Source: Thermococcus sp. MV5 (lineage in GTDB: Archaea; Methanobacteriota_B; Thermococci; Thermococcales; Thermococcaceae). Taken from it: a DNA stretch of 64,000 nucleotides. Positions 1,473 to 23,360 of the stretch are shown here, piece by piece. The stretch lies in contig NZ_SNUE01000002.1 in NCBI RefSeq assembly GCF_012027425.1, forward strand, positions 248,001 to 312,000. Reading direction: 5' to 3'. The number at the start of each line of letters is the position of its first letter. Position 1 is the first letter of the stretch. The notes below the pieces were generated by a model. That model had not been told where the DNA came from. It did not search any database and saw only the letters and a list, made by a program, of their open reading frames with translations. The translations under genes and the position numbers were made by a program.

Positions 1473-1473
1473 T

Positions 1474-4673: not shown

Positions 4674-4674
4674 A

Positions 4675-5016: not shown

Positions 5017-6566
5017 GCTAAACCACCCCAGCTATGATATTGTGCAAAGTTAATTAACGCATCAACTGCTGGATACACAAGTTTATCCAATACTATGTTC
5101 GGGAATAGACCGAATAGTATACACAATACTGCCAAAATGAGCATTGCTATAACCATGGGCGTCGGAACCTCTCGCTTATCTTGGAATTTCTCTAATGGTG
5201 GTCCAAGGAAGGCTGATGCAAAAACCTTAACGAATGAAGCCAATGTCAAGACACTAGTTACCATAGCGAATACTGTAAGAAGGGGGTTTAACCTATAGGA
5301 AGTCTCATAAATTAGGAGCTTACTTGCAAATCCATTAAATGGTGGTAAACCAGATATTGCGGCAGCTCCGACTATGAAACTTATTGTTGTTATTGGCATT
5401 TTTCTTGCTAGACCTCCCATTTCATTGAGGTTCCTAGTTCCAGTAACATAAAATAGTGCTCCCGCCGTCATAAGAAGTAAGCTCTTGTAAATGATGTGGT
5501 TAATTATATGGAAAACTCCTCCTGCCATTGCGTCCCTTCCAAATTCTGCGAGCTTAGATGGGTCATGCAACACCGTCAATCCAACACCTACGCCCAAAAG
5601 CATGTAACCTGTCTGGGAGATAGCGTGATAGCTCATCAACCTCTTAACGTCTTTTTGCACAAGAGCCATTGTAACTCCAATGAACATTGTAAGCACTCCA
5701 AGGATGGACATTATCCAGCCTACCCGAGCAAGGTCTATTACTATGTTCGCAAAGAGTGTAAAACTGACCCTAAAGAGAGCGTAAAGGCTTGCATATGTTG
5801 CTACCAACAAGGGTGGGTTTATTCCAGCCGGTACTTCAGTATAAGCATCAGGCACCCAGTAATGCATTGGAACTGCACCGCACTTCATTGCAAATGACGT
5901 AAATAACAAGCCAAGGGCTATCATGTCTACCATGTTGAATGAGATATTTTTCGCTATGTATGCTAAGTTTAGGTTTCCATACTGACCATAGAGTATAGCT
6001 ACTGCAAATAGGACCATAAGAGAAGCCACAGCACTAACGATGAGATACTTTATTCCAGCCTCACTTGCTTCCCCACGGTAGTTTCTAAAGCCCACTAAGG
6101 CCGAACCTGCTATTCCCGCTATTTCTAAGAACACAAACAAGTTGAATAGATCTCCAGTAAGCACCATGCCCAAAATTCCGGTTTCTAAGAGCATCAGCAA
6201 TGCATAGTATTTTTCCAATCCTGTCTCTTTTTTAACATGTGTATATGAATATATAGCTCCAACAAAGCTCATTAAAGTGGCAGAAATTGCCATAAAGGCT
6301 CCCATTGCATCTACTTCAAACATTATTCTTATCGGAACTGCGTAACCAGAAGGCAGTACTATAGATGGTTTGTCTGCTCCAAAGACATATACCATTATCC
6401 CATTAGTGACTACTTCCTTTGCCAGCAAGAGGGAGAGAATCACAGTACTGCCAGTGATCACGACGGCCCACATCGAGACTCCTTTGTAATGTTTTTTGAA
6501 GAGTGGTGCTATAAACGCTCCAAAGAGTGGAACCGCTACCATCAAAGCAGGTAAGTGCTCAATCAT
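5013..6566 (-). CDS. Second Mbh-type complex, antiporter subunit H (MrpD/NuoN-like)
   Basis: This 517-residue, roughly 14-helix protein belongs to the proton-conducting MrpD/NuoL/M/N family. The signature around L-F-V-F-L-E-I (about residues 146-152) contains the key helix-5 glutamate. K-C-G-A-V-P-M-H-Y-W-V-P-D-A-Y carries the conserved helix-7 lysine followed by the H-x-W-x-x-D-A motif. V-Q-K-D-V-K-R-L-M-S-Y-H-A-I-S-Q-T-G is the family's second conserved block. It is the main ion-pumping subunit of the complex. It is a single copy, with no H' duplicate as in Mbx. It overlaps both neighbours by four bases. Confidence 0.94.
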   Translation of the reverse strand: MIEHLPALMVAVPLFGAFIAPLFKKHYKGVSMWAVVITGSTVILSLLLAKEVVTNGIMVYVFGADKPSIVLPSGYAVPIRIMFEVDAMGAFMAISATLMSFVGAIYSYTHVKKETGLEKYYALLMLLETGILGMVLTGDLFNLFVFLEIAGIAGSALVGFRNYRGEASEAGIKYLIVSAVASLMVLFAVAILYGQYGNLNLAYIAKNISFNMVDMIALGLLFTSFAMKCGAVPMHYWVPDAYTEVPAGINPPLLVATYASLYALFRVSFTLFANIVIDLARVGWIMSILGVLTMFIGVTMALVQKDVKRLMSYHAISQTGYMLLGVGVGLTVLHDPSKLAEFGRDAMAGGVFHIINHIIYKSLLLMTAGALFYVTGTRNLNEMGGLARKMPITTISFIVGAAAISGLPPFNGFASKLLIYETSYRLNPLLTVFAMVTSVLTLASFVKVFASAFLGPPLEKFQDKREVPTPMVIAMLILAVLCILFGLFPNIVLDKLVYPAVDALINFAQYHSWGGLA

Positions 6567-6928
6567 CCTCTCAACCTCCTTACTCGTGTAATATCTAAGG
6601 TTCCATAGTGCTTGTAGATGTTAACTGCAAAGGCAAGCATCAACGCAGTTACTGCAACACCTATGACAATGCTCGTAAGAGTCAGTGCTTGAGGAGTCGG
6701 AAGAACCATTCTTCCCACAGCTTCCCGTGGTGCTTGAGTGTAAATTGGCACATATCCACCTTTGATGTACCCTACAGCTACAATGAACATGTTCACAGCG
6801 CCTTCTAAGATTTCGATTCCAATAACTACTTTTATGAGATTCCGCTTGAAGCCAATAGTGTAAAATCCTAACGCAAGTAGGATTGCAACTACAATAAATG
6901 GAAAGTTCACAAAGATGTTACCATTCAT
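6563..6928 (-). CDS. Second Mbh-type complex, antiporter subunit G (MrpC/NuoK-like)
   Basis: The 121-residue product has three membrane helices and matches MrpC/MbhG, a NuoK homologue. It shows K-R-N-L-I-K-V-V-I-G-I-E-I-L-E-G-A-V-N (about residues 28-46), with the conserved glutamates of this family, and L-P-T-P-Q-A-L-T-L-T-S-I-V-I-G-V-A (about 76-92). The C-terminus ends in R-V-R-R-L-R-G, as does the paralogue in the other cluster. It overlaps the 3' end of subunit F by 11 bases, and its own stop overlaps the start of H. Confidence 0.93.
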   Translation of the reverse strand: MNGNIFVNFPFIVVAILLALGFYTIGFKRNLIKVVIGIEILEGAVNMFIVAVGYIKGGYVPIYTQAPREAVGRMVLPTPQALTLTSIVIGVAVTALMLAFAVNIYKHYGTLDITRVRRLRG

Positions 6929-7385
6929 CTCTCTCCCTCCTTAGAATCAAGAAGAAGATTAGTATGATGCTTGTAAGACCAGCCAAGACTTTTGTTCCAA
7001 CGAAGATGTTAAGGTATGAGAGGGTTCCTCCAGTATTCAAGTATCCGGGATTTATCCCTTTTGGTGTGGGGGCACCAAAGAGGAATCCACTGTTCGCTAT
7101 TACATTTTTCAGGAAGGTATAACCCATTAGTCCTAAAAGGCCGATGCCCAAAAATCCAAGTGCACCAATGCTCTCCAGTTGAGTCAAGGGAGTTTTTTCA
7201 AAGAGTTCTTGGACTTTGTCTTTGCTATTAGCCACGATCAACAACGCTAAACCACTTGCAAAAACTGCTCCTCCCTGAAAACCACCTCCTGGGGTTAAAT
7301 GTCCATGGAGGATTATATACGCTCCAAATACAAGTATCAACGGAGCTAGAAATCTAGTAGTTGTCCTTATGATCGTAGTGGTCAT
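6918..7385 (-). CDS. Second Mbh-type complex, antiporter subunit F (MrpB-like)
   Basis: This 155-residue protein has four membrane helices and corresponds to MrpB/MbhF. The signature [14 protein letters not shown] (residues 27-40) is diagnostic of the MnhB domain. It forms part of the antiporter module that exchanges Na+ and H+. The ATG overlaps the stop of subunit E by four bases, consistent with coupled translation. Confidence 0.93.
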
Positions 7386-7657
7386 TTCCCTCTCCCTCCA
7401 TACTGTCTCAGTGCCATTAAAACTCCAGCAACTGCAGTAAACAAGACTGTGGCTTCACCAAGAGTATCAAAACCCCTGTAGTCAAACACAACGCTTGTAA
7501 CGACATTATTGGCCGACGCTTCTTCTTGAGCGTGATCTACAAAGTATGCATCCATTTCCATATGGGGAGGTTCTCCAAAAGGCCTTATACTTATAACCGC
7601 TGCAAACAGGAATAGCGTAAATGCCAAGAATGCAAAAAGTCCCAGTGCTCTCCTCAT
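7382..7657 (-). CDS. Second Mbh-type complex, subunit E (MrpA C-terminal/MbhE-like)
   Basis: This 91-residue protein has a membrane helix at each end and matches MbhE, which corresponds to a C-terminal piece of MrpA. The block [22 protein letters not shown] (about residues 49-70) is the family signature and is nearly identical in the paralogue at 15896-16189. It is flanked by four-base overlaps on both sides. Confidence 0.92.
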
Positions 7658-7917
7658 TCTACCACCTCCTCATCGGTGGTGTTTCGTATAGCAAGAAGGT
7701 ACATCGCAGTTGTGAGTCCTGCTCCAACACCAGCCTCTGCTATTGCTACATCCGGTGCTTGTAGAATATAGAACTCCACAGAAAGAGCCAAGCTAAAAAC
7801 TGCCATTGCAATTACTGCTGAGATTAAGTTCTTGAACCTAATAGCTGCTATTGAACTTCCAATTAAAGCTATGGCTATTAGAACTTGAATTGCCCAGAAA
7901 AATGTTTCAGGGTTCAT
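7654..7917 (-). CDS. Second Mbh-type complex, subunit D (MrpA-type DUF4040 piece)
   Basis: This 87-residue, three-helix membrane protein carries the block [23 protein letters not shown], diagnostic of MbhD, the DUF4040-type part of MrpA. With subunit E it reconstitutes the MrpA region present as one polypeptide in bacterial Mrp antiporters. The A-P-D-V-A-I-A-E-A motif contains the acidic residues thought to take part in ion translocation. Coupled by four-base overlaps to C and E. Confidence 0.92.
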
Positions 7918-8264
7918 AGTCTCCCCTCCAATTCGTCTATTACCGCACCATACGGTCGTATACCTGATTTTCTAGCCGCTCTACCCAATGCATGAGCTCC
8001 TACTGGATTTGTTAAGACCAAGAATATGACCACAAGCGCTGAATGAATTCCCATTGTAATCCATGCAGTATCATGGCTAAGTCTCCAGTTGTAAATTGAA
8101 TAAACGATCGCACTGAGTACTATGAAAATAGTACCGAACGTGGTACATTTTGTAGAAGCGTGAATCCTTGTATAAACATCAGGAAATCTAAGGATCCCCA
8201 CGCTTGCTAGCAGATTGAAACCCACTCCAATACCAAGTAAGAGTAATAATAACCACTCAATCAT
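7914..8264 (-). CDS. Second Mbh-type complex, subunit C (MrpG-like)
   Basis: This 116-residue protein has three membrane helices and matches MrpG/MbhC. The motif L-R-F-P-D-V-Y-T-R-I-H-A-S-T-K-C-T-T-F-G-T (residues 25-45) is diagnostic. The C-terminal N-P-V-G-A-H-A-L-G-R-A-A segment is also conserved. It is an accessory subunit of the Na+/H+ antiporter module. Start and stop overlap the neighbours by four bases each. Confidence 0.93.
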   Translation of the reverse strand: MIEWLLLLLLGIGVGFNLLASVGILRFPDVYTRIHASTKCTTFGTIFIVLSAIVYSIYNWRLSHDTAWITMGIHSALVVIFLVLTNPVGAHALGRAARKSGIRPYGAVIDELEGRL

Positions 8265-8536
8265 GCTAATCCCACCCTCTTCTTTACTAGATATCTGGCT
8301 ATGTAAAGGGTTGCAATATAACTAAGAACTGCGTAAACTAGAGCAACATCGATCATGATTGCTTGTTTTGTGATAATTCCGTAAAGAACCATGGCTCCAG
8401 CAGTTGTTGTTGTTAAAGCATCTAATGCCACTGCTCTATCAGGAATGGTTGGACCGATTAACATTCTTATCATGGTTAATGTAGCTGAAACAAATAATAG
8501 TACCATTGCACTCATAAATATACTCTCAGGGGTCAT
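8261..8536 (-). CDS. Second Mbh-type complex, subunit B (MrpF-like)
   Basis: This 91-residue, three-helix protein matches MrpF/MbhB, with the conserved G-P-T-I-P-D-R-A-V-A-L-D block. I chose the ATG that overlaps the stop of subunit A as ATGA and follows AAGGAGG. An upstream in-frame ATG would add 13 residues inside the A gene and has no better signal. It is part of the antiporter module. Confidence 0.92.
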   Translation of the reverse strand: MTPESIFMSAMVLLFVSATLTMIRMLIGPTIPDRAVALDALTTTTAGAMVLYGIITKQAIMIDVALVYAVLSYIATLYIARYLVKKRVGLA

Positions 8537-9036
8537 TCCGCAATCCTCCTTGCCCATTTTGGTAAATACCCACAAAGCTCCTCAGGAGTTGGTTTCTCTT
8601 TTCCAGGAGGCACATTAATCCAGTGAACATAGAAATTACCCTCTTCATCAATTTCAAGTGTAAACGTTCCTGGTGTTAGGGTTATTGAATTTGCTAGAAG
8701 CGTTCTGCTTTCATCTCTAGTCAAATCCGGAGAAATTTTGACAATTCCTGGCCTTATCTTGCCTGTAATGACTCTATAAGCAACATCAAAGTTTGCTTTT
8801 GCCATGGCATAGAAAAAGGGTCCTAGTGCATATACAATAAAAAACACCCATCTTTTTGGATTAAAGAGGTAATCCAGTCTTTCATCCATTATATTTCTTG
8901 TAACATAGCCTATCATAGCTGCTATTATAATGCCCGCCACTAGTTCTTCTGGACTCCATAGTAAAACACTGCCTGAACCTGCAGTCAAAACAAGGTATAC
9001 AATTAACGACCAAAGGAAAGATGTTGCAAAGGACAT
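8533..9036 (-). CDS. Second Mbh-type complex, subunit A (MrpE-like)
   Basis: This 167-residue protein has N-terminal membrane helices and a C-terminal cytoplasmic domain and matches MrpE/MbhA. The segment A-N-F-D-V-A-Y-R-V-I-T-G-K-I-R-P-G-I-V-K (about 80-99) and L-A-N-S-I-T-L-T-P-G-T-F-T-L-E (about 114-128) are diagnostic. It is the first gene of the operon. The ATG follows GATGAGGTGAGAAA, and a promoter with a SurR motif lies about 80-115 bp upstream. Confidence 0.93.
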   Translation of the reverse strand: MSFATSFLWSLIVYLVLTAGSGSVLLWSPEELVAGIIIAAMIGYVTRNIMDERLDYLFNPKRWVFFIVYALGPFFYAMAKANFDVAYRVITGKIRPGIVKISPDLTRDESRTLLANSITLTPGTFTLEIDEEGNFYVHWINVPPGKEKPTPEELCGYLPKWARRIAE

Positions 9037-9115
9037 TTTCTCACCTCATCTTTAGGTTCTAAACCTTTTGAGAGCATATTTCAACCTAATTCCATTACTC
9101 GCTTAGCTAAATTCC

Positions 9116-9149
9116 ATTAAATACGTTTCTTTAACGAAAGGTTAAAAAC
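9116..9149 (-). promoter_or_regulatory. Promoter of the second Mbh-type operon with an exact SurR motif
   Basis: Read on the minus strand, 9149-9133 is GTTTTTAAC-CTTTC-GTT, an exact match to the extended SurR recognition pattern GTTn3AACn5GTT known from Pyrococcus furiosus. It is followed at 9123-9116 by TATTTAAT, a TATA-like box about 80 bp upstream of the first gene. SurR is the redox-sensitive regulator that activates hydrogenase genes when sulfur is absent. A site directly upstream of the TATA box fits activation. The motif match is seen directly; binding is inferred. The rest of the 9037-9315 gap is AT-rich, with T-runs after the upstream operon that could terminate transcription. Confidence 0.7.
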
Positions 9150-9315
9150 ATGAAATTTGACAAACATAAAAGTAATAAAGCTTTACATAAAATAGAACAT
9201 TAAGCTGCAGGAATAGACTAAATTGTTCAATAATGCAAAAAATAATAATTTTGATCCTCAAAAATGTACAAACTCTAAAAGAATACTCCAAAAGAATTAT
9301 AATAATAGAAAAAGG

Positions 9316-9885
9316 TCACTCTTCGTATTCTTCTATGGCACCAAACTTACACACTGTAGCACACACACCACATCCAACACACTTATTTGGATCGATTTTG
9401 TGAACTACTCTAGGTGCTCCTTCAATGGCATTTTGAGGGCAGTTTCTTGCACATAGAGTGCAGCCTTTACATTTTTCTGCAATTATGCGATATTTCTTTG
9501 TCTTCCCTCCCTGTTGAGCGACCATCTCCTCGATTTCCTCTTCTTTAAGCCATTTTAAGTTATCATCATATTTATTGTAGGTAGCCAATAAAAACTCATT
9601 GCTCATCTCTAGGGCACTTACGGGACATACATCCACACATTGCTGACAGAAGACACATCTCCCTAACCAAAGCGTTACTTTCTTTATTTCAGGGACGTAT
9701 TCAAATACTCCTGCTGGACATACGTTCATACACAATTTACACCCGATACACTTGTCAACGTGATATACGAGTTTTCCCCTAAAACCTTCAGGAATTGACA
9801 CAGGCTCACTTTTGGGGAAAGGATTTGTAGCTGGTTTTTTAAAGAGGTTTCTTAAGACTACTGAGAGTGTTGGAGGAACTTTCAT
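9316..9885 (-). CDS. mbhN: Membrane-bound hydrogenase subunit N with four [4Fe-4S] motifs
   Basis: The first 115 residues are a normal MbhN with two motifs (C46-C49-C52-C56 and C77-C80-C83-C87). The last 60 residues add two further ferredoxin motifs, C139-C142-C145-C149 and C169-C172-C175-C179. This tail resembles the 2[4Fe-4S] C-terminal domain of NuoF/HydB-type flavoproteins. MbhN of P. furiosus, as I remember it, ends after the second motif. The protein takes electrons from ferredoxin for the proton-reducing complex, so the extra clusters may extend the electron wire or provide another docking site. ATG overlaps the M stop by four bases. It is the last gene of the mbh operon. Confidence 0.95.
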   Translation of the reverse strand: MKVPPTLSVVLRNLFKKPATNPFPKSEPVSIPEGFRGKLVYHVDKCIGCKLCMNVCPAGVFEYVPEIKKVTLWLGRCVFCQQCVDVCPVSALEMSNEFLLATYNKYDDNLKWLKEEEIEEMVAQQGGKTKKYRIIAEKCKGCTLCARNCPQNAIEGAPRVVHKIDPNKCVGCGVCATVCKFGAIEEYEE

Positions 9886-10871
9886 GCAATCACCCCCAAG
9901 ATGTCTATTGCTAGCAATATTGCCCCTACTATGCTTGCAGGCAGTATTCTGCTCCAGAATAAATTGACAGCTTGAGTAACTCTAAGTCTTCCTGTAATGG
10001 CCCTGAATAGGCTCATGCTAATAAAAAGTACCGTAAAGACTTTTATTGTGTGAAAGATTAAATCCACTAGCATAGCTCCCATACCACTTATTCCTAAGTA
10101 CTGACTGAGGCCCCACGGGAAAAATATCGCCACTACTAAACTGGCGCTTGCAAACTCTTTTAACGAACTGCTTAGTTTAAACAATGCCAAGTATCTACCA
10201 CTGTATTCTGCCATAGGCCCTTCTGCAACTTCTGTTTCCGCCTCAGGAATATTGAAATAACCAACTTCAATCTCACTTGCGAGCCAAAAGATAAACACTA
10301 TTAAGAGAACCAAGCTACCCACAATTGTCAATGGAGTTCCAATTTCCCATATATTATGCTGGTAAAGTGTCTCAAGGCTAAAAGGCTTTTCTACATCAAG
10401 TTTGGCCAAACGCCACAATATTACAAAAAGGCCAAGCATCATCGGTGCTTCTCTCGACGCTAGCATAATAACCTCCCTTTGAGCCCCTATTTGAGCGTAT
10501 GGAGAACCTGAGCTCACTGCACCAATTACTCTTATGAAAGCTATTAATGCAAGTAAATAAATAAATACAACTACATCTCCCTTTGTGGCAAGAATTGGGC
10601 CAAATCCAATAGGGGTGTATGCTAAAAGGGCTATTGATGCAGCTAATGCTAGGATTGGAGAGACTTCAAACATCTTATTGGAATCCCTTGGGATTATTGA
10701 TTCCTTACTAGCAAGTTTTAAGAAATCGTAGAAAGGTTGAAGGAGGGGAGGGCCCACTCTTCTTTGCATTCTGGCAACTAATTTTCTATCCAAACCATCC
10801 CATAGAAGCGAAACGAAAGAGACGTAAAGATAGACACCAATTAATCCCACAGTAGTATACAGAACGTTCAT
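9882..10871 (-). CDS. mbhM: Membrane-bound hydrogenase membrane anchor subunit M
   Basis: This 329-residue, roughly eight-helix NuoH homologue contains R-V-G-P-P-L-L-Q-P-F-Y-D-F near residue 35 and the acidic A-E-T-E-V-A-E-G-P-M loop near residue 210. It fixes the hydrogenase arm in the membrane next to the ion-translocating module. I chose the ATG that overlaps the L stop as ATGA and follows GGAGGTG. An upstream ATG would add six residues. Confidence 0.93.
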   Translation of the reverse strand: MNVLYTTVGLIGVYLYVSFVSLLWDGLDRKLVARMQRRVGPPLLQPFYDFLKLASKESIIPRDSNKMFEVSPILALAASIALLAYTPIGFGPILATKGDVVVFIYLLALIAFIRVIGAVSSGSPYAQIGAQREVIMLASREAPMMLGLFVILWRLAKLDVEKPFSLETLYQHNIWEIGTPLTIVGSLVLLIVFIFWLASEIEVGYFNIPEAETEVAEGPMAEYSGRYLALFKLSSSLKEFASASLVVAIFFPWGLSQYLGISGMGAMLVDLIFHTIKVFTVLFISMSLFRAITGRLRVTQAVNLFWSRILPASIVGAILLAIDILGVIA

Positions 10872-12160
10872 AGTCTGACACCTCCACATATACCTCCTAC
10901 TGGTTCAGGCTTTGCCTTTATATCCGGGTTAATTTCTTTTGTCTTTTCTATTGAGGCCTTGAGCAGATCTTTTTCAGCCAATATCTTCTTTTTACCTGTT
11001 TTTGAGTCTATGATAGCAACTCTATCGGTACAGCTCAAGCATGGGTCAATTGATGCTATTGCTACCGGCACATCTGCAAGTTGCTCTCCAACTAATGCCC
11101 TTGCAACTGCAAATAAGTTTGGAAAAGTAGGTTCTCTTGCCTTCCACTTTGCCGGGCCGTCTGTCCCAGGATTTGCCCTCACATAATGTATGGTCTCCCC
11201 TCTAGGGGCCTCATACCTCCCAATTCCCATGCCATTCGCTTTTTTCAGCTTAACCAGAGCTACATTGTCCTTTGGAAATGTTTTTATTTTCCCTTCAGGC
11301 ATTTGATCAAAAGCTCGCTCTATGATCTCCATGCTTTGCCAAAGTTCGCCAACTCTAACAACCATTCTGTCAAAAACATCCCCCTTTATTACACCAGTGA
11401 ACTCCTTTGGAGTTATGGGTTTAACTCCTAAATCAGGGTAAACGCCAAGTTGTTCATTATATCTTATATCTTTCTTAATTCCACTTCCTCTTGCAGTTGG
11501 ACCTTGGGCACTATATTCAATTGCAATTCTCTTTGGAATGACTCCCGCATCCCTTAAACGTGCCTCTACTGTGGGATCATAAAGAAAGATCTCCTCTATC
11601 TTTGGCATTACTTCCTTGCGATAATATTTTATCATCTCAAGAATTGCTCTTTTATGCTTCTCTTCTATGTCCCTTCTAACACCGCCAATTGTATTCATAC
11701 CATAGTTTACCCTGTTTCCACCAATTGCCTCTAAGATGTCCATTACTCTTTCCCTAGCAAGCCAACTTAAGTGAAGAACAGTGTCATATCCGATTGCATG
11801 TCCAACGACTCCGAGGTTGAGCAAGTGGGAATGAATCCTCTCCAGCTCTCCTATGATTGCCCTAATGTATTCAGCTCTCTCAGGCACTTCTATACCTGCC
11901 ATTTCCTCAACGGCCCTAGTATATGTGTGATTATGGGAAAATGAGCATATTCCACAAATTCTTTCAACTAGATAAAGCAATTGAATATAGTTTCTTCTCA
12001 TAGCAATCCATTCAAGTCCCCTTAAATTATAACCCAACTTAACATCAACGTTTATTATACGCTCTCCATCAAGGGTTATGATAAACTTCTCTGGCTCCTC
12101 TAATGCTGGATGAATTGGACCAATCGGGATTTTAACCCAGTATTCAACTCTGTCATTCAT
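10868..12160 (-). CDS. mbhL: Membrane-bound hydrogenase catalytic large subunit L
   Basis: This 430-residue [NiFe] subunit is closely similar over its length to the MbhL of P. furiosus as I recall it (E-Y-W-V-K-I-P, I-I-T-L-D-G-E-R-I-I-N-V-D-V-K-L-G-Y-N-L-R-G). The nickel ligands are C69 and C72 in R-I-C-G-I-C and C374 and C377 in D-P-C-L-S-C-T-D-R. It evolves H2 from protons using electrons from ferredoxin, and the complex stores the energy as an ion gradient. The ATG overlaps the end of subunit K. The C-terminal tail after the second motif is about 50 residues. Confidence 0.97.
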   Translation of the reverse strand: MNDRVEYWVKIPIGPIHPALEEPEKFIITLDGERIINVDVKLGYNLRGLEWIAMRRNYIQLLYLVERICGICSFSHNHTYTRAVEEMAGIEVPERAEYIRAIIGELERIHSHLLNLGVVGHAIGYDTVLHLSWLARERVMDILEAIGGNRVNYGMNTIGGVRRDIEEKHKRAILEMIKYYRKEVMPKIEEIFLYDPTVEARLRDAGVIPKRIAIEYSAQGPTARGSGIKKDIRYNEQLGVYPDLGVKPITPKEFTGVIKGDVFDRMVVRVGELWQSMEIIERAFDQMPEGKIKTFPKDNVALVKLKKANGMGIGRYEAPRGETIHYVRANPGTDGPAKWKAREPTFPNLFAVARALVGEQLADVPVAIASIDPCLSCTDRVAIIDSKTGKKKILAEKDLLKASIEKTKEINPDIKAKPEPVGGICGGVRL

Positions 12161-12681
12161 TGTGACCCCTCCTTCTTGAGTTTGTAAGGATGTCCAGCAT
12201 TTTTCACCATCTCTGGAGTTATGCCAGTCTCATCAAGTCTTAATGGGTAGATCCCTTCTGGGAAGTCGTCAGGAAGGAATAATCTTCTTGGATCAGGTAT
12301 GCCTTCAAAGACTATTCCAAGGAACTCCTGATTCTCTCTTTCATATGGTACCGAACTGGGAAATACGTCTCCAAGAGAGGATATCTTGGGGTCTTCTTTT
12401 GGACAAGTCGTCGTTACAACTACTGATAGACTTGGTTCCTCTTCACAGAAAAGCTCTAAGTGATATGTAGCACTTAGGTAGTCTCCCCTATCCTCACCAA
12501 TTATTATTGAGAACTGAGCATGTGGGTCAATTTCTTGAAGATACTTCATGAGGCCTTTGAAGTTCTCCCTATCAATCTCTATCCAGATTCTTTTCCTAGG
12601 ATAGGGCGTTTTAGTCTGTGAGATATGAGTTTCAACTTCAAATCTCTCTTTAATTTTTTTGATTAATTCTTCTGGAGTCAT
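12157..12681 (-). CDS. mbhK: Membrane-bound hydrogenase subunit K (NuoC-like)
   Basis: This 174-residue structural subunit shows the NuoC signature E-R-E-N-Q-E-F-L-G-I-V-F-E-G (about 115-128) and the tail R-R-L-F-L-P-D-D-F-P-E-G-I-Y-P-L-R. It binds L and J in the cytoplasmic arm and carries no cofactor. Four-base overlaps join it to J and L. Confidence 0.93.
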   Translation of the reverse strand: MTPEELIKKIKERFEVETHISQTKTPYPRKRIWIEIDRENFKGLMKYLQEIDPHAQFSIIIGEDRGDYLSATYHLELFCEEEPSLSVVVTTTCPKEDPKISSLGDVFPSSVPYERENQEFLGIVFEGIPDPRRLFLPDDFPEGIYPLRLDETGITPEMVKNAGHPYKLKKEGSQ

Positions 12682-13148
12682 TCTTTCTCACCTTCTATCT
12701 TTTTTAGAAGTTTTTCCAAACCCAAAACTACACCATGAAGAATCGCTTCCGGTCTTGGTGGGCATCCTGGAATAAACACATCTACCGGAATATGCTTATC
12801 AAGTGGTGCATTCGTGAAAGGACTCTCAAAAAATACACTCCCTCCCGTCGGACAAGCACCAATAGCAATAACAACCTTTGGGTCTGGAGTTTGTTCATAA
12901 ATCAACTTAACTCTCTCAAGACTCTGATCAGTAATCGGCCCAGTTACAAGTAAAACGTCTGCATGTCTTGGTGTCCCTACTAGTTTAACACCAAACCTCT
13001 CCGCATCATAACGAGGAGTTAATGCAGCAATTATCTCAATATCACATCCGTTACATGAACCACTATTAACATGAAAGACCCAAGGTGATCTTCCAAGATA
13101 CTTACAAAGTTTTGAGATCTTCTTTTCAAGCATTTCTCTCTCACCCAT
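12678..13148 (-). CDS. mbhJ: Membrane-bound hydrogenase small subunit J
   Basis: This 156-residue NuoB-type subunit has proximal [4Fe-4S] ligands C32 and C35 (S-C-N-G-C), C99 (G-A-C) and C129 (G-C-P-P-R-P). I set the start at the ATG after GGGGGTGAAACA, directly behind the stop of subunit I. An upstream ATG inside mbhI would add ten residues with no ribosome binding site. It relays electrons to the [NiFe] centre in MbhL. Confidence 0.94.
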   Translation of the reverse strand: MGEREMLEKKISKLCKYLGRSPWVFHVNSGSCNGCDIEIIAALTPRYDAERFGVKLVGTPRHADVLLVTGPITDQSLERVKLIYEQTPDPKVVIAIGACPTGGSVFFESPFTNAPLDKHIPVDVFIPGCPPRPEAILHGVVLGLEKLLKKIEGEKE

Positions 13149-13152
13149 TGTT

Positions 13153-13500
13153 TCACCCCCGAATAACCATAAGCCCAAGCAGTATCGCTACAGTAATTAA
13201 TAAATAACTAACATAATCAGTAAGCAAACCGGTGTGTTCTCTTCTAAAAGTCAAAAACATTCTGTTTATTCCCCTAACTAGTCCCCACATGACATGTCTC
13301 CCTGTAAAATATCCTCTAAAATGTTCAAATTGGGGGATAACCTTATCTTGGTCTTCTCCACTTATAAAGATCTTAGTACCATCTCCTACCTTTCTAGTCC
13401 CAGCACTTGCATTCTCAGCCCATTTCATGAGTAAATAACTAATCAGCAGACCAATAACAAAGGCATAAATAAAGTAAAGAGCGTCCCAATAACCAAACAT
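13153..13500 (-). CDS. mbhI: Membrane-bound hydrogenase linker subunit I
   Basis: This 115-residue protein has an N-terminal helix, a central polar stretch with I-F-I-S-G-E-D-Q and W-G-L-V-R-G-I-N-R-M, and a C-terminal helix. It matches MbhI, which joins the antiporter and hydrogenase modules. Identification rests on position between H and J and on the central block shared with the paralogue at 4675-5016. Confidence 0.88.
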   Translation of the reverse strand: MFGYWDALYFIYAFVIGLLISYLLMKWAENASAGTRKVGDGTKIFISGEDQDKVIPQFEHFRGYFTGRHVMWGLVRGINRMFLTFRREHTGLLTDYVSYLLITVAILLGLMVIRG

Positions 13501-13501
13501 C

Positions 13502-15088
13502 TCACACCCCTCCTATGAACTTAATGAGTGCCATTATGTATTCCCCTTTGAGCTGCTCAAGCATTTTTGCCACTGGTAACATGACTCTCTCATTTATTTG
13601 CCAAGGTAAGAGGCCCATTAGAATTATAATCACTACTAAAAACAGCATTGGGATAAGCATTGTTTTTTCTGGCTCTGTAGCAGTTTTCACTCGTTCACTT
13701 TCAATTCCTAAAAAGGTGAATAATACTCTTGTATAAGCTGCTAATGAAAACACAGTACCGACCACTGCGATCACTGCCAAAATTGGATTATACATTGCAG
13801 AGCTTTCATAGATGAGCCACTTGCTTGCAAAACCATTTAGCGGAGGAAGTCCTATTATTGCCGCAGCACCTATTAAAAATGAGAGAGTAGTAAGTGGCAT
13901 TCTTCTTGCTAATCCACTGAGTTCGTTTAGATTTTTTGTTCCAACTTGATGGATCACTGCACCGGCCACAAAAAAGAGAAGTGCCTTTATGACTGCGTGA
14001 TTAACTATATGATATACAGCGCCTGTTAAAGCTATTTCCCCAGCCTTCTCCCCGTATGCAACTACTCCAATTCCAATTCCAAGAAGAATATATCCAATTT
14101 GGCCGACACTTGAGAAAGCAAAAAGCCTTTTCATATCTGTTTGAATAACTGCCATTGCATTTCCAACAATTAACGTTAAGCAACCGAAAAATATTATTGC
14201 CCATCCCAGTGTGTTCACGTCAATAGAAGGCGCACCCAAGGCCTTAAGGTATTCATGCAACCCTGGATTAAACACTCCAAATACTATCCTAGCTATAGCA
14301 TAAACACCACCCACTTTAATAACAAGGCCAGAGAGCATTGCTGAAATAGAGCTTGGAGCTGCTGGATGAGCATCAGAAAGCCACATGTGAACTGGAACTG
14401 CACCACTTTTAAATAATAACCCACCAATAAGAAAGGCAAGGGCAACTCTACTTACGAGAGTCGGATTCTCCGCTACTTTTACTGCTAGATACGCCATTGT
14501 GAGTGTGCCATACTGCCCGTATAAGAGTGCAATTCCTAATAAGATAAAGGAGCTTGCAAGAGATCCAACAAACATGTATTTAATTCCCGCTTCGATTCCT
14601 TCCCAAGTGTCATTTCTGAATGCAACCAACACATAGCTTGCTATACTCATTATTTCGAGGAAGACATAGAAGTTGAAAATATCCCCAGTGATTACGATAC
14701 CCAGCATTCCAAGCTCCAAAACGAGTACTAGAGTGTAGTATTTGTCTAACCCACTATCATCTTTCATGTATCCTAAAGAGTATACTATCGCTAGAAAACT
14801 TACAAAAGTCACTGTTAATGCAAGTAATGCCCCAAACAGGTCAACTTCCCATATTATCCTAATTGGGAAGTTAACTCCCTTTCCAATTGGGGTCACATCA
14901 CCCAACGTATAGAGAAGTATCTCATTGCTCTTCCAAATACTGTAAAATATCCTTGCAGCAATTGCAAACGTAAACCCGCTGATAATTACTGCCCAGTATT
15001 CTCTAACTTTTCTTCCTAACAAACCAAGTATTGGCATAGAGAATGCCCCAAATAATGGAGTTATTATGAGCCATGGAAGGGCATTCAT
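13502..15088 (-). CDS. mbhH: Membrane-bound hydrogenase antiporter subunit H (MrpD-like)
   Basis: This 528-residue, roughly 14-helix protein of the MrpD/NuoN family contains N-F-Y-V-F-L-E-I (helix-5 glutamate, about residue 149), K-S-G-A-V-P-V-H-M-W-L-S-D-A-H (helix-7 lysine) and I-Q-T-D-M-K-R-L-F-A-F-S-S-V-G-Q-I-G. It is the ion-conducting subunit of the complex. ATG overlaps the end of subunit G; the next gene follows after one base. Confidence 0.95.
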   Translation of the reverse strand: MNALPWLIITPLFGAFSMPILGLLGRKVREYWAVIISGFTFAIAARIFYSIWKSNEILLYTLGDVTPIGKGVNFPIRIIWEVDLFGALLALTVTFVSFLAIVYSLGYMKDDSGLDKYYTLVLVLELGMLGIVITGDIFNFYVFLEIMSIASYVLVAFRNDTWEGIEAGIKYMFVGSLASSFILLGIALLYGQYGTLTMAYLAVKVAENPTLVSRVALAFLIGGLLFKSGAVPVHMWLSDAHPAAPSSISAMLSGLVIKVGGVYAIARIVFGVFNPGLHEYLKALGAPSIDVNTLGWAIIFFGCLTLIVGNAMAVIQTDMKRLFAFSSVGQIGYILLGIGIGVVAYGEKAGEIALTGAVYHIVNHAVIKALLFFVAGAVIHQVGTKNLNELSGLARRMPLTTLSFLIGAAAIIGLPPLNGFASKWLIYESSAMYNPILAVIAVVGTVFSLAAYTRVLFTFLGIESERVKTATEPEKTMLIPMLFLVVIIILMGLLPWQINERVMLPVAKMLEQLKGEYIMALIKFIGGV

Positions 15089-15447
15089 CCTCTCAACCTC
15101 CTTAGTTTGCTCACATCAAGAGTTCTGTAGTGCTTATATGCATTAATTGTCAAAGCCATTGCAAGGGAAAGAACACAAACTCCAATAACAATGCTGGTAA
15201 GCACTAAAGCTTGGGGAATCGGCCCTACCATTGGAACACCTTCTAATGTTTCATATCCGGTGTATATTGGGGCTGTTGGCAAAATGCCATTCTCTAAGCG
15301 ATAACCCAGACTTATAAGCAATAAATGAATTCCTGCATCAACTAAATTTAACGCCAGAATTAGCTTAATGAGATTCCTCTTGTACAAAAATGCATAGATG
15401 CCCATGAATATCATCAGGAATGCAGTCACAAATTGTAAGGGTATCAC
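15085..15447 (-). CDS. mbhG: Membrane-bound hydrogenase subunit G (MrpC-like)
   Basis: This roughly 120-residue, three-helix NuoK-type subunit carries K-R-N-L-I-K-L-I-L-A-L-N-L-V-D-A-G-I-H and I-P-Q-A-L-V-L-T-S-I-V-I-G-V. I chose the GTG that overlaps the F stop as GTGA and follows AGGAGGTGG. Another GTG three codons upstream is possible but sits on the Shine-Dalgarno. It ends in L-R-R-L-R-G like its paralogue. Confidence 0.92.
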   Translation of the reverse strand: MIPLQFVTAFLMIFMGIYAFLYKRNLIKLILALNLVDAGIHLLLISLGYRLENGILPTAPIYTGYETLEGVPMVGPIPQALVLTSIVIGVCVLSLAMALTINAYKHYRTLDVSKLRRLRG

Positions 15448-15899
15448 TTTTTCCACCTCCTGAACAATGCAATTGCAAATAACGCACTAACTAATCCTGT
15501 GTATACTTTTAGACCTACAGCTAAGTTCATTATGGGCAAGTATCCCGCCGAAAGAAGGCTTCCAGGTTCTCCATTGAAAACCGGTCCTTCACGCCACAGG
15601 GTGTTATAAAAGAATACGACACCGAAACCAAGCATACCCATTGCTAGAAACACCAATCCACCGATACCTTCAAGAGCAGAGTATAACGTCTTGTTAATCC
15701 TGTTCTTTGTCTCGCTAAGACCAAAAGCTATTAAGAAAAGAACTCCTGCACCCGCTACAGTAGCACCACCTTGGAATCCTCCTCCGGGTGTGAGGTGCCC
15801 ATGAGCAACCACATAAGCACCAAATATTCCAATAAGAGGTATGGTAACTCTCGCCATTGTTTTAACTATAAGACCCATGTCATTATTTTGGCTGTTCAT
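15444..15899 (-). CDS. mbhF: Membrane-bound hydrogenase subunit F (MrpB-like)
   Basis: This 151-residue, four-helix MnhB-domain protein shows [14 protein letters not shown] near residue 37. The start chosen is the ATG after GGAGGGGAGAGGA, overlapping the E stop as ATGA. An upstream ATG would add five residues, M-E-G-R-G, which are the ribosome binding site translated. It is part of the Na+/H+ antiporter module. Confidence 0.93.
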   Translation of the reverse strand: MNSQNNDMGLIVKTMARVTIPLIGIFGAYVVAHGHLTPGGGFQGGATVAGAGVLFLIAFGLSETKNRINKTLYSALEGIGGLVFLAMGMLGFGVVFFYNTLWREGPVFNGEPGSLLSAGYLPIMNLAVGLKVYTGLVSALFAIALFRRWKK

Positions 15900-16189
15900 T
15901 CCTCTCCCCTCCATTTTCTAAGTAAGGCAATTGCACCTGCTATGGAAGTAAACAATACTGTCGCTTCCCCTAGTGTGTCGTAACCTCTATAGTCAAACAC
16001 GATGTCTGTGACGATATTTGTACCACCCACCTCTTCCACACCATGTTCTATGTAATATTGATCAGTATAGCGGTATTTTTGCCACTCTTCGCCTCCTAAA
16101 CCAAACTGTAAACCATAGTTTGGATTAGCAACTACTAAGAGAACACCCAACATGAAAAGTAATGACAATGCTCCGAAAGTTGTTTTCAT
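15896..16189 (-). CDS. mbhE: Membrane-bound hydrogenase subunit E
   Basis: This 97-residue protein has terminal membrane helices and the signature [22 protein letters not shown] near residues 54-75. It corresponds to a C-terminal part of MrpA in bacterial antiporters and to MbhE in Thermococcales. Coupled to D and F by four-base overlaps. Confidence 0.93.
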   Translation of the reverse strand: MKTTFGALSLLFMLGVLLVVANPNYGLQFGLGGEEWQKYRYTDQYYIEHGVEEVGGTNIVTDIVFDYRGYDTLGEATVLFTSIAGAIALLRKWRGEE

Positions 16190-16452
16190 GGTGCCTCACG
16201 CTCCCATCTCTCGGTTTTTGATATTCCATAAACAACTATTGCAGTAACAATGCCTGCCCCCACTGCAGCCTCTGCTATCGCTACATCAGGAGCATGAAGC
16301 ATGTAAAACTCCAAACTAAGAAGGAGACTCATAGCAGTTGATGCCAAAGCTGCTGAGAGGAGATCCCTAGTAGTTATCATCCAATATGAAGAAATCAATA
16401 TACTAATTAACAGAATCACCTGGATTGCCATATCAACATTAACTACATTCAT
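16186..16452 (-). CDS. mbhD: Membrane-bound hydrogenase subunit D
   Basis: This 88-residue, three-helix DUF4040-type subunit carries [23 protein letters not shown]. It supplies, with E, the MrpA-like part of the antiporter module. The ATG follows GGGGTGAGGTCCA and overlaps the end of subunit C. Confidence 0.93.
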   Translation of the reverse strand: MNVVNVDMAIQVILLISILISSYWMITTRDLLSAALASTAMSLLLSLEFYMLHAPDVAIAEAAVGAGIVTAIVVYGISKTERWEREAP

Positions 16453-16814
16453 TGGACCTCACCCCGGAGTTTTGTCTCATACGCATCAATGACAGCTTTT
16501 GCAGGTTTGTACCCACTAAGATGTGCTGCCTTTGCTATCGCGTGAGCTCCTGTGGGGTTGGTTAACATCAGTGCTATTAGTGCTACCAAGCTGTGAAGAG
16601 CCATCTGAAGATACTTTGGATTGTTAGTCTCCTTTATCTGCCAAATAGAATGTACAACAACCGCAAAAACAGCAAATATTGTTCCAAATGTAGTACACTT
16701 TGTTGCTCCATGAAGCCTAGTATATACATCTGGAAACCTGTGAAGGGAGAGACTTCCCAATAAATTAAATATAATACTTACAGCAAGGAGAGCATAAACT
16801 ATGAAATCAATCAC
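16449..16814 (-). CDS. mbhC: Membrane-bound hydrogenase subunit C (MrpG-like)
   Basis: This 121-residue, three-helix MrpG-type protein has L-H-R-F-P-D-V-Y-T-R-L-H-G-A-T-K-C-T-T-F-G-T (about 24-45) and the conserved N-P-T-G-A-H-A-I-A-K-A-A segment. It is an accessory subunit of the antiporter module. The ATG overlaps the B stop by four bases. Confidence 0.93.
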   Translation of the reverse strand: MIDFIVYALLAVSIIFNLLGSLSLHRFPDVYTRLHGATKCTTFGTIFAVFAVVVHSIWQIKETNNPKYLQMALHSLVALIALMLTNPTGAHAIAKAAHLSGYKPAKAVIDAYETKLRGEVQ

Positions 16815-17074
16815 TCCAATCCCCCCTGTAGATATTTAGCAACCACTAATGTACCAATGTAGCTGAGAAGAGCATACACTATTGCAATATCAATGTAAAT
16901 TACCCTATCATAAGCTGCGCCCAGCAAGATCATCCCTGCAACTATGAGGGTATTTAGTGTATCAACCCCTACAACTCTATCAGGAATACTTGGACCCAAC
17001 ATCACACGAACCAAAGTTATGACTCCTGCAAGAATCACTCCTAGTATCCCATAGAAAAACCCGGTGAAAATCAT
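16811..17074 (-). CDS. mbhB: Membrane-bound hydrogenase subunit B (MrpF-like)
   Basis: This 87-residue, three-helix protein contains G-P-S-I-P-D-R-V-V-G-V-D, the MrpF signature. The start is the ATG overlapping the A stop as ATGA, preceded by AAGGAGG. An upstream in-frame start would add seven residues inside mbhA. Confidence 0.93.
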   Translation of the reverse strand: MIFTGFFYGILGVILAGVITLVRVMLGPSIPDRVVGVDTLNTLIVAGMILLGAAYDRVIYIDIAIVYALLSYIGTLVVAKYLQGGLE

Positions 17075-17571
17075 TTTCCTAACCTCCTTGCCCATTTTTC
17101 AAATGAACCTGCAACAAGTTCTGAACTCTCTGGTTCCTCTTCTGTTACGTGTATCCAATGAACATAAAGGGCATTTTCCTCAGGACAAGCATCTATTGTT
17201 AAGGTACCTGGAGTTAATGTAATGGAATTGCTCAAAATAGTATACTGGGCTTCATTTTCCAAATCGACGGGGACCTTAACAATTCCTGGTTTTATTTTAC
17301 CCGTAACAACCCTATAAGCTACATCCAAATTGGCTTTCACCATGCCCCAGAATAAAGGTCCTATTGCATATACCAAGAAACTTACTAACCTAATAGGGTT
17401 TAAGAACCTCTTTGCCCTTTCCCCTACGATATTCCTAGTAGAAAATCCTATTACGAAAGCAAAAATAATGCCTGCTACAATCTCTTCCATACTCCAGAGC
17501 ATGCCTTTGCTACCTGCTGTAAGTACAAGCCAGAGCACAAACGACCACATGAATGCAACAATGAAACTCAT
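17071..17571 (-). CDS. mbhA: Membrane-bound hydrogenase subunit A (MrpE-like)
   Basis: This 166-residue MrpE-type protein has K-A-N-L-D-V-A-Y-R-V-V-T-G-K-I-K-P-G-I-V-K and L-S-N-S-I-T-L-T-P-G-T-L-T-I-D. It is the first gene of the classical mbh operon. I set the start at the ATG after GAGGTGGGAAAA; a GTG three codons upstream overlaps that ribosome binding site and is less likely. A TATA box and SurR motif lie 120-150 bp upstream. Confidence 0.93.
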   Translation of the reverse strand: MSFIVAFMWSFVLWLVLTAGSKGMLWSMEEIVAGIIFAFVIGFSTRNIVGERAKRFLNPIRLVSFLVYAIGPLFWGMVKANLDVAYRVVTGKIKPGIVKVPVDLENEAQYTILSNSITLTPGTLTIDACPEENALYVHWIHVTEEEPESSELVAGSFEKWARRLGK

Positions 17572-17690
17572 TTTTCCCACCTCAACTTTTGGTTTACATC
17601 CCAGTCCTCACCTATTTTTCTATTTATCGATATTAAATTCAATTGTTTCTTTTAAAAGGGTTTTGTAAAGGGCTAAATTAACAACAAAGG

Positions 17691-20337: not shown

Positions 20338-21447
20338 ATGGATTTCATACCCTATATCAACTTCATTTCGAGATGGTTATTGTTCCTAGCTGTTGCATAT
20401 AAAGCGTTAAAAAGTAAAGAAAAACGATGGGGGTTAATAGCTATAGCTCTTTTTATAAACGCTCTCGACATAGAGAGTTATATCTTAGAACCTTTAGGAG
20501 TGGGCATAAAACCCGGGGCATATGAAATAACTTCCCAGCTCCCAAGTTTTCTAATAGCCACGTTTTTAGTATGGGGCGGAATACAACTCAAAAAGGATAG
20601 AAGTGAATTTAAGGATGTTGCATATTTAGGATTTTTTGCCGTTGCTGCATACATATGGATCTTTCTATCAGCTACAGACTTTTTTGACAGGTTCCCACAC
20701 TCATTTACAATAAAACTCTCATTTCCATATCTTGCCTTTGGCTTTTCATTGATCTACATTGGATATATACTAAGAAGTTATGTAGTATCAAAAAAGAGTC
20801 TTGAAGAGCTATTTCCTTGGGGACTGGCTCTTTTAGGAGCAATAAACCTAACCTATCCAGTCACTCGAAATATTGAATGGCTTGTTCCTATAGCATTCCT
20901 ACTTGCAGCCATTTTCAGATTTATTGCTGCTCTTGGAGCTCTGAAATTTGCCATATTTCCTGCAAAAATGGCCATATTTGAAAAACCACAAAAAGAACAC
21001 CCAACGGAGATTAAAGGGATTTTTCTATTTAATAGCAAAAAAGAACTTAAGAAAAGTCTCCCAACCTTCTTCAGCGAGAACGTAGTAATGATAACAAGGA
21101 ATCCACCAAAAACAGATGACTTAGATAATGTGCTAGTTTACTGGCTCACTAAGATAGAAAGTGATAACATCAGACAAGATGGGAAGATTTACCCCATCTC
21201 TCCCGCAAAAATGGACATTTTGATAGACCTTTTAACTAGAAACCTTGAAAGCGGCTACAATGCCATTTATATAGATGGATTCGAGTACTTGGTTGTAGAA
21301 AATGGATTCGAAAGTGCAGCAAAATTTTTATTCGGGCTTAGGGACAGGGTAATGAGTAATGACAAAGCTCTAGCCGTTGTTTTAGACCCAAGAACACTAG
21401 ATGATAAACAATTAGCACTTCTTGAAAGAGAACTTCGACTTCAATAG
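20338..21447 (+). CDS. DUF835 membrane protein
   Basis: This 369-residue protein has about seven hydrophobic segments in the first 220 residues, followed by a soluble DUF835 domain of about 150 residues, recognisable from V-V-M-I-T-R-N-P-P, the Y-I-D-G-F-E-Y-L-V block near residue 318 and the V-V-L-D-P-R-T-L-D near residue 347. DUF835 is a Thermococcales-enriched domain of unknown function. The gene follows the nucleotidylyltransferase after six bases on the same strand, so it is the third cistron of the uppP operon. No catalytic function can be assigned. Confidence 0.8.
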   Translation: MDFIPYINFISRWLLFLAVAYKALKSKEKRWGLIAIALFINALDIESYILEPLGVGIKPGAYEITSQLPSFLIATFLVWGGIQLKKDRSEFKDVAYLGFFAVAAYIWIFLSATDFFDRFPHSFTIKLSFPYLAFGFSLIYIGYILRSYVVSKKSLEELFPWGLALLGAINLTYPVTRNIEWLVPIAFLLAAIFRFIAALGALKFAIFPAKMAIFEKPQKEHPTEIKGIFLFNSKKELKKSLPTFFSENVVMITRNPPKTDDLDNVLVYWLTKIESDNIRQDGKIYPISPAKMDILIDLLTRNLESGYNAIYIDGFEYLVVENGFESAAKFLFGLRDRVMSNDKALAVVLDPRTLDDKQLALLERELRLQ

Positions 21448-21466: not shown

Positions 21467-22639
21467 TCAGAATCCAAGATACTCTATGAATCTCCTCGTA
21501 TGTTTTACATCTCTTTGGAGTTCAATTTTTTGAAGTATTTGCCTTTCTATTGCCCTAAGAGCATCATGCACAGCTTGTATGGCACCCCATGTCTCTCCGG
21601 TAGCGATATATTGTCCCTTATCCGTTACTATTCTCATCCTAGCTTGGTAGAGATGCACTCCCCGTAGCTTTTCTGGGAACCGCCTAATGTTCAAATAGAT
21701 TATTCCCTCATTGCCTAGTACTTCCTCGTACCTATCGACAAACCTTCTCATATCCACTATTATCCTTTCTCTAGTGAAATCACTCAAGTAGTGAGCATCT
21801 CCTCCAAGTTGTAAATAGAACTTAACCTTTTTTTCCACCATTCTTGAGATTGGAAGTAAGAGATCCTTTACAGTTAACACTCCCCTAACAACATTTTCCC
21901 TATCCACAATCACGAGACCATCTATCTCATACTTTCTCATTAACTCAACTGCCTCTTTGACTGATGCTTCAGGGTCTATTGTAATCACTCCCCTAATCAT
22001 GATGTCTCTAAGTTGCATTGAAAATGGAGGTATTTTTTCTCCTGCCACTTCTCCGAATTGGGCCTTAAACCTTGGCTTTATGAATCGAACTATTAAGTCA
22101 TGTAATGTTATGAGCCCTTCAAGCTTTCCTTCTTCGGTGACAATAGGTATTCTTGAAATTGCGTAATCCCTCATGGTTGCAAGAGCCTTTGCTACAGTAT
22201 CTTCAGGACCAAGAGTAATTACATCCCTCGTCATAAATTCTTCGACTTTTCTTTTTCCAAACTCTTCTTTAACAATTCTTTCAAGAAGGGTTATATCACT
22301 TATTACACCAATAATTGAACTTTTATCCTTCCCAACGGGAAGTGAACGTAAGTCAACCTCAATCATGAGTTTGGCTGTAACACTTAAGTCTTCTTCAAGC
22401 TTTACAACTGGTGCAGTTTTATATACATCCTTAACTTTGGCTTTTATTGGATCCCACTTCAAATGGGACCTAATTATCAGATCTTGAGTCAATACCCCTT
22501 TGTACATTTTTCCATCAAAAACAACAATTAAATCGGGGTCTTCTTTTTCAAAAATTCCAATGGCCTCAGAAAGAGGGGAGTTTATATCGATTTTTGCAAA
22601 TTTTTCTGTCATAACTTCCTGCACAGAAATCCCGACCAT
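21467..22639 (-). CDS. Four-CBS-domain protein with an HPF/S30EA-like C-terminal domain
   Basis: The 390-residue product begins with two Bateman modules: CBS motifs near residues 3-55, 65-120, 135-190 and 210-265 (for example V-E-E-F-M-T-R-D-V-I-T-L-G-P-E-D-T-V and L-R-D-I-M-I-R-G-V-I-T-I-D-P-E-A-S-V). The last 120 residues match the pattern of ribosome-hibernation (HPF/RaiA, S30EA) domains: a helix with F-V-D-R-Y-E-E-V-L, strands with I-Y-L-N-I-R-R-F-P and A-R-M-R-I-V-T-D-K-G-Q-Y-I-A, and a final helix A-I-Q-A-V-H-D-A-L-R-A-I-E-R-Q-I-L. CBS pairs bind adenine nucleotides, so an energy-sensing ribosome factor is possible. The ATG after GGAGGTGTCGAGA was chosen. It is convergent with the DUF835 gene. 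Confidence 0.85.
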   Translation of the reverse strand: MVGISVQEVMTEKFAKIDINSPLSEAIGIFEKEDPDLIVVFDGKMYKGVLTQDLIIRSHLKWDPIKAKVKDVYKTAPVVKLEEDLSVTAKLMIEVDLRSLPVGKDKSSIIGVISDITLLERIVKEEFGKRKVEEFMTRDVITLGPEDTVAKALATMRDYAISRIPIVTEEGKLEGLITLHDLIVRFIKPRFKAQFGEVAGEKIPPFSMQLRDIMIRGVITIDPEASVKEAVELMRKYEIDGLVIVDRENVVRGVLTVKDLLLPISRMVEKKVKFYLQLGGDAHYLSDFTRERIIVDMRRFVDRYEEVLGNEGIIYLNIRRFPEKLRGVHLYQARMRIVTDKGQYIATGETWGAIQAVHDALRAIERQILQKIELQRDVKHTRRFIEYLGF

Positions 22640-22727
22640 TCTCGACACCTCCTTCAATGTTATATTGGTTTTTATCCCATTTAAACCTTTCCAAGAGAGG
22701 ATTTATTTAAAAGATGAAATAAAATTT

Positions 22728-23360
22728 TTAACCGGCCATTAATTCCAAATCTAGTTTAAAGGGATAGTGTTTCCTAAAAACCAGATAAACTCCAAATAAG
22801 GCACCAAGTGTGTTTACTAGAACATCCCTAACTTTATTTCCAATGGTTTCATGTATGAAAGAAATCTCACTTTCACTGAACTTTTCAGCTACCTCCCACC
22901 CAATACTAAGCACGAATAGGATAACAAAAGAATATATGAGCAATTTTTTCTTATTAACTCTTATATACTCCTTCCTCGTTAGATTCATTAAAATCTCAGT
23001 CACCATCAACCAAACCACCAACCCCCCAAAAAAGTGGCTTATCATGTCAGCATTTCTCCATTCTTTGTGAAAAAGATCAATAGTAGTGAAAGGCACATTC
23101 ACGAGAGAAACATGAATAGCTATAAATATCCCCAAAAGTGCCATGGTCTTCACATTATAGATAGGACTTAATATCGAGGTAATTTTTGAGGGAATATCCT
23201 TAAGATATTTTTCAGCAAGGTTGGGAATATAAAGGCCGATTAGTGCCACAGTAGTACGATAAATATGGTCAATTCTCCAATAGAACAGGGCAGTTATCAA
23301 CCCAAGAAAAACAATGAATCTACTTACGTTTAGTGCTGTTTTTGGCTCTATATACACCAC
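22728..23360 (-). CDS. Hypothetical multi-pass membrane protein (VanZ/DUF2238-like features)
   Basis: This 210-residue protein has about five to six hydrophobic helices. Motifs are D-M-I-S-H-F-F-G-G-L near residue 104, G-W-E-V-A-E near residue 153 and R-D-V-L-V-N-T-L-G-A-L-F-G near residue 181. This H-F-x-G / G-W-E-x-x-E / D-x-x-x-N-x-x-G pattern recalls the VanZ/DUF2238 group of small membrane proteins, whose role is unclear. The GTG start is very near AGGTG, so the true start could be downstream. I do not assign a function. Confidence 0.6.
   Translation of the reverse strand: MVYIEPKTALNVSRFIVFLGLITALFYWRIDHIYRTTVALIGLYIPNLAEKYLKDIPSKITSILSPIYNVKTMALLGIFIAIHVSLVNVPFTTIDLFHKEWRNADMISHFFGGLVVWLMVTEILMNLTRKEYIRVNKKKLLIYSFVILFVLSIGWEVAEKFSESEISFIHETIGNKVRDVLVNTLGALFGVYLVFRKHYPFKLDLELMAG

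What the first reader, a model, noticed from the sequence alone, without database searches (positions are those of the whole stretch)
21467..22639. CBS tetrad fused to a ribosome-hibernation-factor-like (HPF/S30EA) domain
Four CBS repeats, which usually sense adenine nucleotides, are followed by a 120-residue domain with the strand/helix pattern and final helix of HPF/RaiA. The fusion would link cellular energy charge directly to ribosome silencing in an archaeon.
Basis: partly seen in the sequence, partly recalled or inferred. Interest (0 to 1): 0.7.

Follow-up and report, generated by a model that had tools for sequence, protein, structure and literature searches.

The report
HibA, an archaeal ribosome-hibernation factor

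Summary
Window 21467-22639 on the minus strand is a complete 390-aa gene with four CBS repeats (1-269) and a C-terminal domain of about 120 residues (270-390). [quoted passage not shown] The protein is, however, already known. It is 77% identical over its whole length to Pyrococcus abyssi HibA (PDB 9SR9-9SRF, 9T7H; Madru et al., Nat Commun 2026, PMC13324472). For HibA, 70S binding, translation inhibition, and slow recovery with loss of 70S ribosomes in a Thermococcus barophilus knockout have all been shown. The claim of a direct energy-charge link is only half supported. The published CBS module binds AMP better than ADP or ATP, and the window protein keeps the adenylate signature only in CBS3/CBS4, the published site. 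But AMP and ATP did not measurably change ribosome binding. Verdict: an ordinary ortholog of a recently described family, conserved in 76 of 78 sampled genomes of its archaeal family. Novelty is low.

The parts
21467..22639 (-). hibA ortholog, 390 aa, ATG start at 22639, stop codon 21469-21467
   Evidence: 77% identity to P. abyssi HibA over 388 aa
21833..22639 (-). N-terminal CBS module (residues 1-269), four CBS repeats
   Evidence: Pfam CBS, 4 stretches, E = 3.4e-41; Foldseek to four-CBS proteins SriA, SSO3205, MJ1225, AMPK gamma and Dri; domain boundary as published for P. abyssi HibA
22019..22072 (-). PTC loop (residues 190-207, RFKAQFGEVAGEKIPPFS), which in P. abyssi HibA inserts at the peptidyl transferase centre
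   Evidence: 16 of 18 identical to P. abyssi; role from PMC13324472; low confidence (191-203 below pLDDT 50) in the free-protein model
22094..22117 (-). CBS3 adenylate signature GLITLHDL (residues 175-182)
   Evidence: conserved G-x-x-T-x-x-D in 14 of 15 homologs
21860..21883 (-). CBS4 adenylate signature GVLTVKDL (residues 253-260)
   Evidence: T256 and D259 invariant; the published AMP/ATP site lies at the CBS3/CBS4 interface
21467..21832 (-). HPF/RaiA-like domain (residues 270-390)
   Evidence: AF2 model pLDDT 90.7 with E-H-E-E-E-H order; Foldseek best hits are HPF/protein Y; PDB 9sr9_H E = 5.2e-56
22679..22685 (-). TATA-box-like TTTAAAT with purine-rich upstream element (GGAAAGG), conserved in orthologs
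   Evidence: invariant columns in alignment of 15 upstream regions
22646..22652 (-). Shine-Dalgarno GGAGGTG
   Evidence: invariant or nearly so in 15 upstream regions

Best explanation
The gene is the Thermococcus-lineage ortholog of HibA, an archaeal ribosome-hibernation factor. [quoted passage not shown] The N-terminal four-CBS module swings over the 50S tRNA sites (PTC, uL5 or L1-stalk positions), so the protein blocks translation and holds 70S ribosomes together and protected in stressed or stationary cells. An adenylate, preferably AMP, can occupy the CBS3/CBS4 site. Shown for this protein: sequence, predicted fold, orthology. Shown for orthologs only: ribosome binding, translation inhibition, AMP binding, knockout phenotype. 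Not shown for any: that adenylate binding switches the activity.
For: 77% identity over 388 aa to the P. abyssi HibA chain in PDB 9SR9-9SRF and 9T7H, E = 4.4e-196. HPF domain 88/121 identical and PTC loop 16/18 identical to P. abyssi. [quoted passage not shown] coli HPF and YfiA. CBS module matches ribosome-bound CBS proteins SriA (rank 1), SriD and Dri, and the AMP-bound SSO3205. T-x-x-D adenylate signature only in CBS3 and CBS4, matching the published single site at that interface. Single copy and near-universal in the family (76 of 78 genomes). Function of orthologs: PMC13324472.
Against: Pfam S30AE does not recognise the domain, so homology to bacterial HPF rests on fold and on the published structures rather than direct sequence detection. 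Function of this particular protein is inferred from orthologs.
Confidence: 0.96

Rival explanations
1. Energy-charge switch: AMP/ATP exchange at CBS3/CBS4 controls whether HibA binds or leaves the ribosome, so the fusion directly couples adenylate status to ribosome silencing.
For: CBS3/CBS4 signatures conserved in 14 of 15 homologs; AMP preferred over ADP and ATP by ITC in the P. abyssi ortholog (PMC13324472).
Against: In reconstituted complexes AMP did not change the states, and ATP gave only a minor extra state; no clear effect on ribosome binding; no nucleotide seen in native complexes (PMC13324472). Those tests were at equilibrium, without mRNA/tRNA competition.
Confidence: 0.3
2. A CBS-domain regulator of another process (for example a transcription regulator like HhpR, or a partner of DNA replication/recombination proteins), with the C-terminal domain only incidentally HPF-like.
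For: The NCBIfam HhpR model matches the CBS part, though far below its cut-off (49.9 versus 520 bits). Orthologs Pab0961/TK1186 were found in pulldowns with DNA replication and recombination proteins (PMC13324472).
Against: Cryo-EM structures of the close ortholog on the ribosome; the HPF-like domain always sits in a fusion-length open frame; Foldseek matches are to HPF, not to DNA-binding domains.
Confidence: 0.03

Closest known systems
HibA (Pyrococcus abyssi Pab0961/Q9UYR4; Thermococcus barophilus F0LKU5; T. kodakarensis TK1186)
   Same: Full-length co-linear, 77% identical to the P. abyssi protein; same CBS tetrad, PTC loop and HPF/RaiA domain; CBS3/CBS4 adenylate signatures
   Different: Ordinary species-level substitutions only
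Bacterial and chloroplast HPF / RaiA / protein Y (Ribosomal_S30AE, PF02482)
   Same: Fold and strand/helix order of the C-terminal domain; binding site in the 30S mRNA/tRNA channel is known for the ortholog
   Different: 10-19% identity in the leading structural alignments; not detected by the Pfam model; carries a CBS module in place of the long-HPF dimerisation domain; two archaeal insertions reported for the family
Dri (Pyrobaculum calidifontis) and SriA-D (Methanosarcina acetivorans)
   Same: CBS-module proteins bound to archaeal ribosomes; similar CBS fold
   Different: Dri is two CBS modules without an HPF domain; the Sri entries were seen here only as four-CBS chains of 270-340 aa
AMPK gamma / MJ1225 / SSO3205
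   Same: Four-CBS disk fold that binds adenylates
   Different: No HPF domain; kinase subunit or uncharacterised

Membership tests
HibA | Four tandem CBS domains, residues about 1-269 | tested here: met
[quoted passage not shown]
HibA | Long PTC loop (190-207) next to CBS3 | tested here: met
   16/18 identical to P. abyssi
HibA | Orthology to the characterised member | tested here: met
   (77% over 388 aa); single full-length copy in the genome
HibA | Adenylate site at the CBS3/CBS4 interface | tested here: met
   signature present only in CBS3 and CBS4; binding itself not testable here
HibA | Binds 70S, inhibits translation, preserves 70S in stationary phase | not testable with these tools
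   shown for P. abyssi and T. barophilus orthologs (PMC13324472)
Ribosomal_S30AE (PF02482), bacterial HPF/RaiA | Match above the Pfam gathering score | tested here: not met
   no match even at E <= 10
Ribosomal_S30AE (PF02482), bacterial HPF/RaiA | Same fold | tested here: met
HhpR (CBS transcription regulator, NF053603) | Match above the curated NCBIfam cut-off | tested here: not met
   49.9 bits against a cut-off of 520

The most novel reading that the evidence does not exclude
The CBS3/CBS4 adenylate site is a true switch that times loading or release of HibA under mRNA/tRNA competition, or its sequestration by another partner, making HibA a direct energy-charge sensor for ribosome silencing. 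The published equilibrium tests would have missed this.
Probability: 0.3. Interest if true: 0.5.

Novelty: already known. Interest (0 to 1): 0.18.

Why it matters
HibA shows that HPF/RaiA-type ribosome hibernation extends to Archaea, joined to a CBS module that itself occupies tRNA sites. The window adds one more well-conserved ortholog. The part still open is whether adenylates regulate it; the conserved CBS3/CBS4 signatures, set against degenerate CBS1/CBS2, make that testable by mutation.

Tried and rejected
Plus strand of the same span: no open frame over it. Pfam S30AE as direct evidence for HPF: failed, so fold comparison was used. Profile search of the PDB with the C-terminal domain alone reaches only 9sr9_H and 9l96_a, a 406-aa CBS protein, and no bacterial HPF. 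A search for a paper describing 9L96 found none in the library. The first alignments of relatives used the wrong strand for some loci and were redone. The Keese et al. Phr paper is not held, so a Phr operator at this promoter was not tested. HhpR-like transcription regulator: rejected on score and on ribosome-bound structures of the ortholog.

Full report
WHAT IS THERE. Window 21467-22639 on the minus strand is an intact gene of 390 codons, ATG at 22639 and stop at 21469-21467. A longer mechanical start (TTG at 22657) would add six residues, but the ATG is preceded by GGAGGTG at 22652-22646, and the alignment of upstream regions of 15 orthologs conserves this site and, about 40 bases upstream of the ATG, an AGGTTTAAAT promoter-like box. 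The published P. abyssi protein also starts at the matching methionine. The plus strand shows no matching frame. The genome is a member of Thermococcaceae: close relatives include Thermococci/Thermococcus metagenome assemblies.

DOMAINS. Pfam reports four CBS stretches, E = 3.4e-41, and nothing significant for the last 120 residues. PF02482 (Ribosomal_S30AE, the HPF/RaiA family) gives no match in the whole genome even at E <= 10, while the same search is positive in 12 of 14 control genomes. [quoted passage not shown] Foldseek against the PDB returns chloroplast protein Y, Listeria HPF (TM 0.82 by target length, 2.2 A), E. coli HPF and YfiA and others; the first 27 rows are all HPF/RaiA/protein Y. 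That library stops on 8 April 2026 and listed no HibA entry among its best 50, so this is independent of the HibA structures. The full-length model (pLDDT 80.7) places the CBS module nearest to SriA of Methanosarcina, SSO3205 with AMP, MJ1225, AMPK gamma and Dri.

IDENTITY. A sequence search of the PDB finds one near-identical architecture: the chain in 9SR9-9SRF and 9T7H, E = 4.4e-196, aligned 1-388 to 1-388. These entries are the HibA structures of Madru et al. 2026 (PMC13324472), although the chain is labelled 'Dehydrogenase'. One held genome (L021) encodes the P. abyssi sequence shown; the window protein is 77% identical to it over 388 residues with no gaps. The CBS module is 209/269 identical, the HPF domain 88/121 and the PTC loop 16/18.

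DISTRIBUTION. The only full-length match in its own genome is the gene itself; the other seven matches are partial CBS hits at 26-40% identity. With the HPF-domain profile, 76 of 78 genomes of the family have it. The two without are fragmented assemblies (85% and 88% complete). Two of three genomes of a second family (f4) in the class also have it, and none of 13 from three other families do (counts by family are my own tally of its rows). Every listed match lies in an open frame of about 392-418 codons, that is, at fusion length. This agrees with the published statement that HibA is in 47% of archaeal genomes.

MECHANISM. For the orthologs it has been shown (PMC13324472) that the HPF domain fills the 30S mRNA/tRNA channel while the CBS module takes three positions on the 50S overlapping tRNA sites; that HibA inhibits cell-free translation and the CBS module alone does not; and that deletion in T. 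barophilus doubles the lag (2 to 4 h) and lowers stationary-phase 70S by about 60%. With the high conservation here, transfer of this function to the window protein is inference, but strong.

ENERGY SENSING. The typical adenylate signature G-x-x-T/S-x-x-D is intact only in CBS3 (GLITLHDL) and CBS4 (GVLTVKDL), and degenerate in CBS1 (GVLTQDLI) and CBS2 (GVISDITL) (the motif itself is general knowledge of CBS domains). This fits the published stoichiometry of one nucleotide per module at the CBS3/CBS4 interface with AMP preferred (Kd 12, 65 and 113 uM for AMP, ADP and ATP). But the same work found no clear effect of AMP or ATP on ribosome binding and no nucleotide in native complexes. The CBS module has a mechanical job that needs no ligand.

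VERDICT. The protein is an ordinary ortholog of a family described in April 2026. It would have been a strong finding before that date.

Noticed in passing
window 47919-48629, minus strand: aSBDS (all three SBDS Pfam domains), upstream of exosome Rrp4/Rrp41/Rrp42-like genes and downstream of a proteasome-alpha-like gene (the latter by my reading of the translations). aSBDS is the second protein found on hibernating P. abyssi ribosomes (PMC13324472), so both factors are in this window, about 25 kb apart.
   Followed up: partly
window 22702-22724, minus strand: AT-rich, partly palindromic element TTTTATTTCATCTTTTAAATAAA upstream of the promoter-like box, with several columns conserved in hibA orthologs. 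It could be a second promoter or an operator. hibA is reported to be controlled by Phr, but no Phr site was tested here.
   Followed up: partly
L026 (G023), HibA-like protein of another Thermococci family: Divergent HibA, 33% identical: CBS3 signature changed to GIVKMFDI and the PTC loop is almost unrecognisable (4 of 18), while CBS4 and the HPF domain remain. Adenylate binding and the PTC contact may not be conserved family-wide.
   Followed up: partly
window 22728-23360 minus strand; 20338-21447 plus strand: Neighbours of hibA: a membrane protein weakly like DUF2238/VanZ upstream on the same strand, and a convergent DUF835 membrane protein downstream. No obvious link to translation.
   Followed up: no
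PDB 9l96 chain a (also 9l98, 9l9c, 9l9v): A 406-aa CBS protein whose C-terminus matches the HPF-domain profile (E = 5.9e-12); apparently another HibA-like protein in a solved structure, for which no paper was found in the library.
   Followed up: partly
window 1014-17580, minus strand: Two adjacent, similar membrane hydrogenase/Mrp antiporter-type gene clusters, one after the other; seen only in the translations.
   Followed up: no
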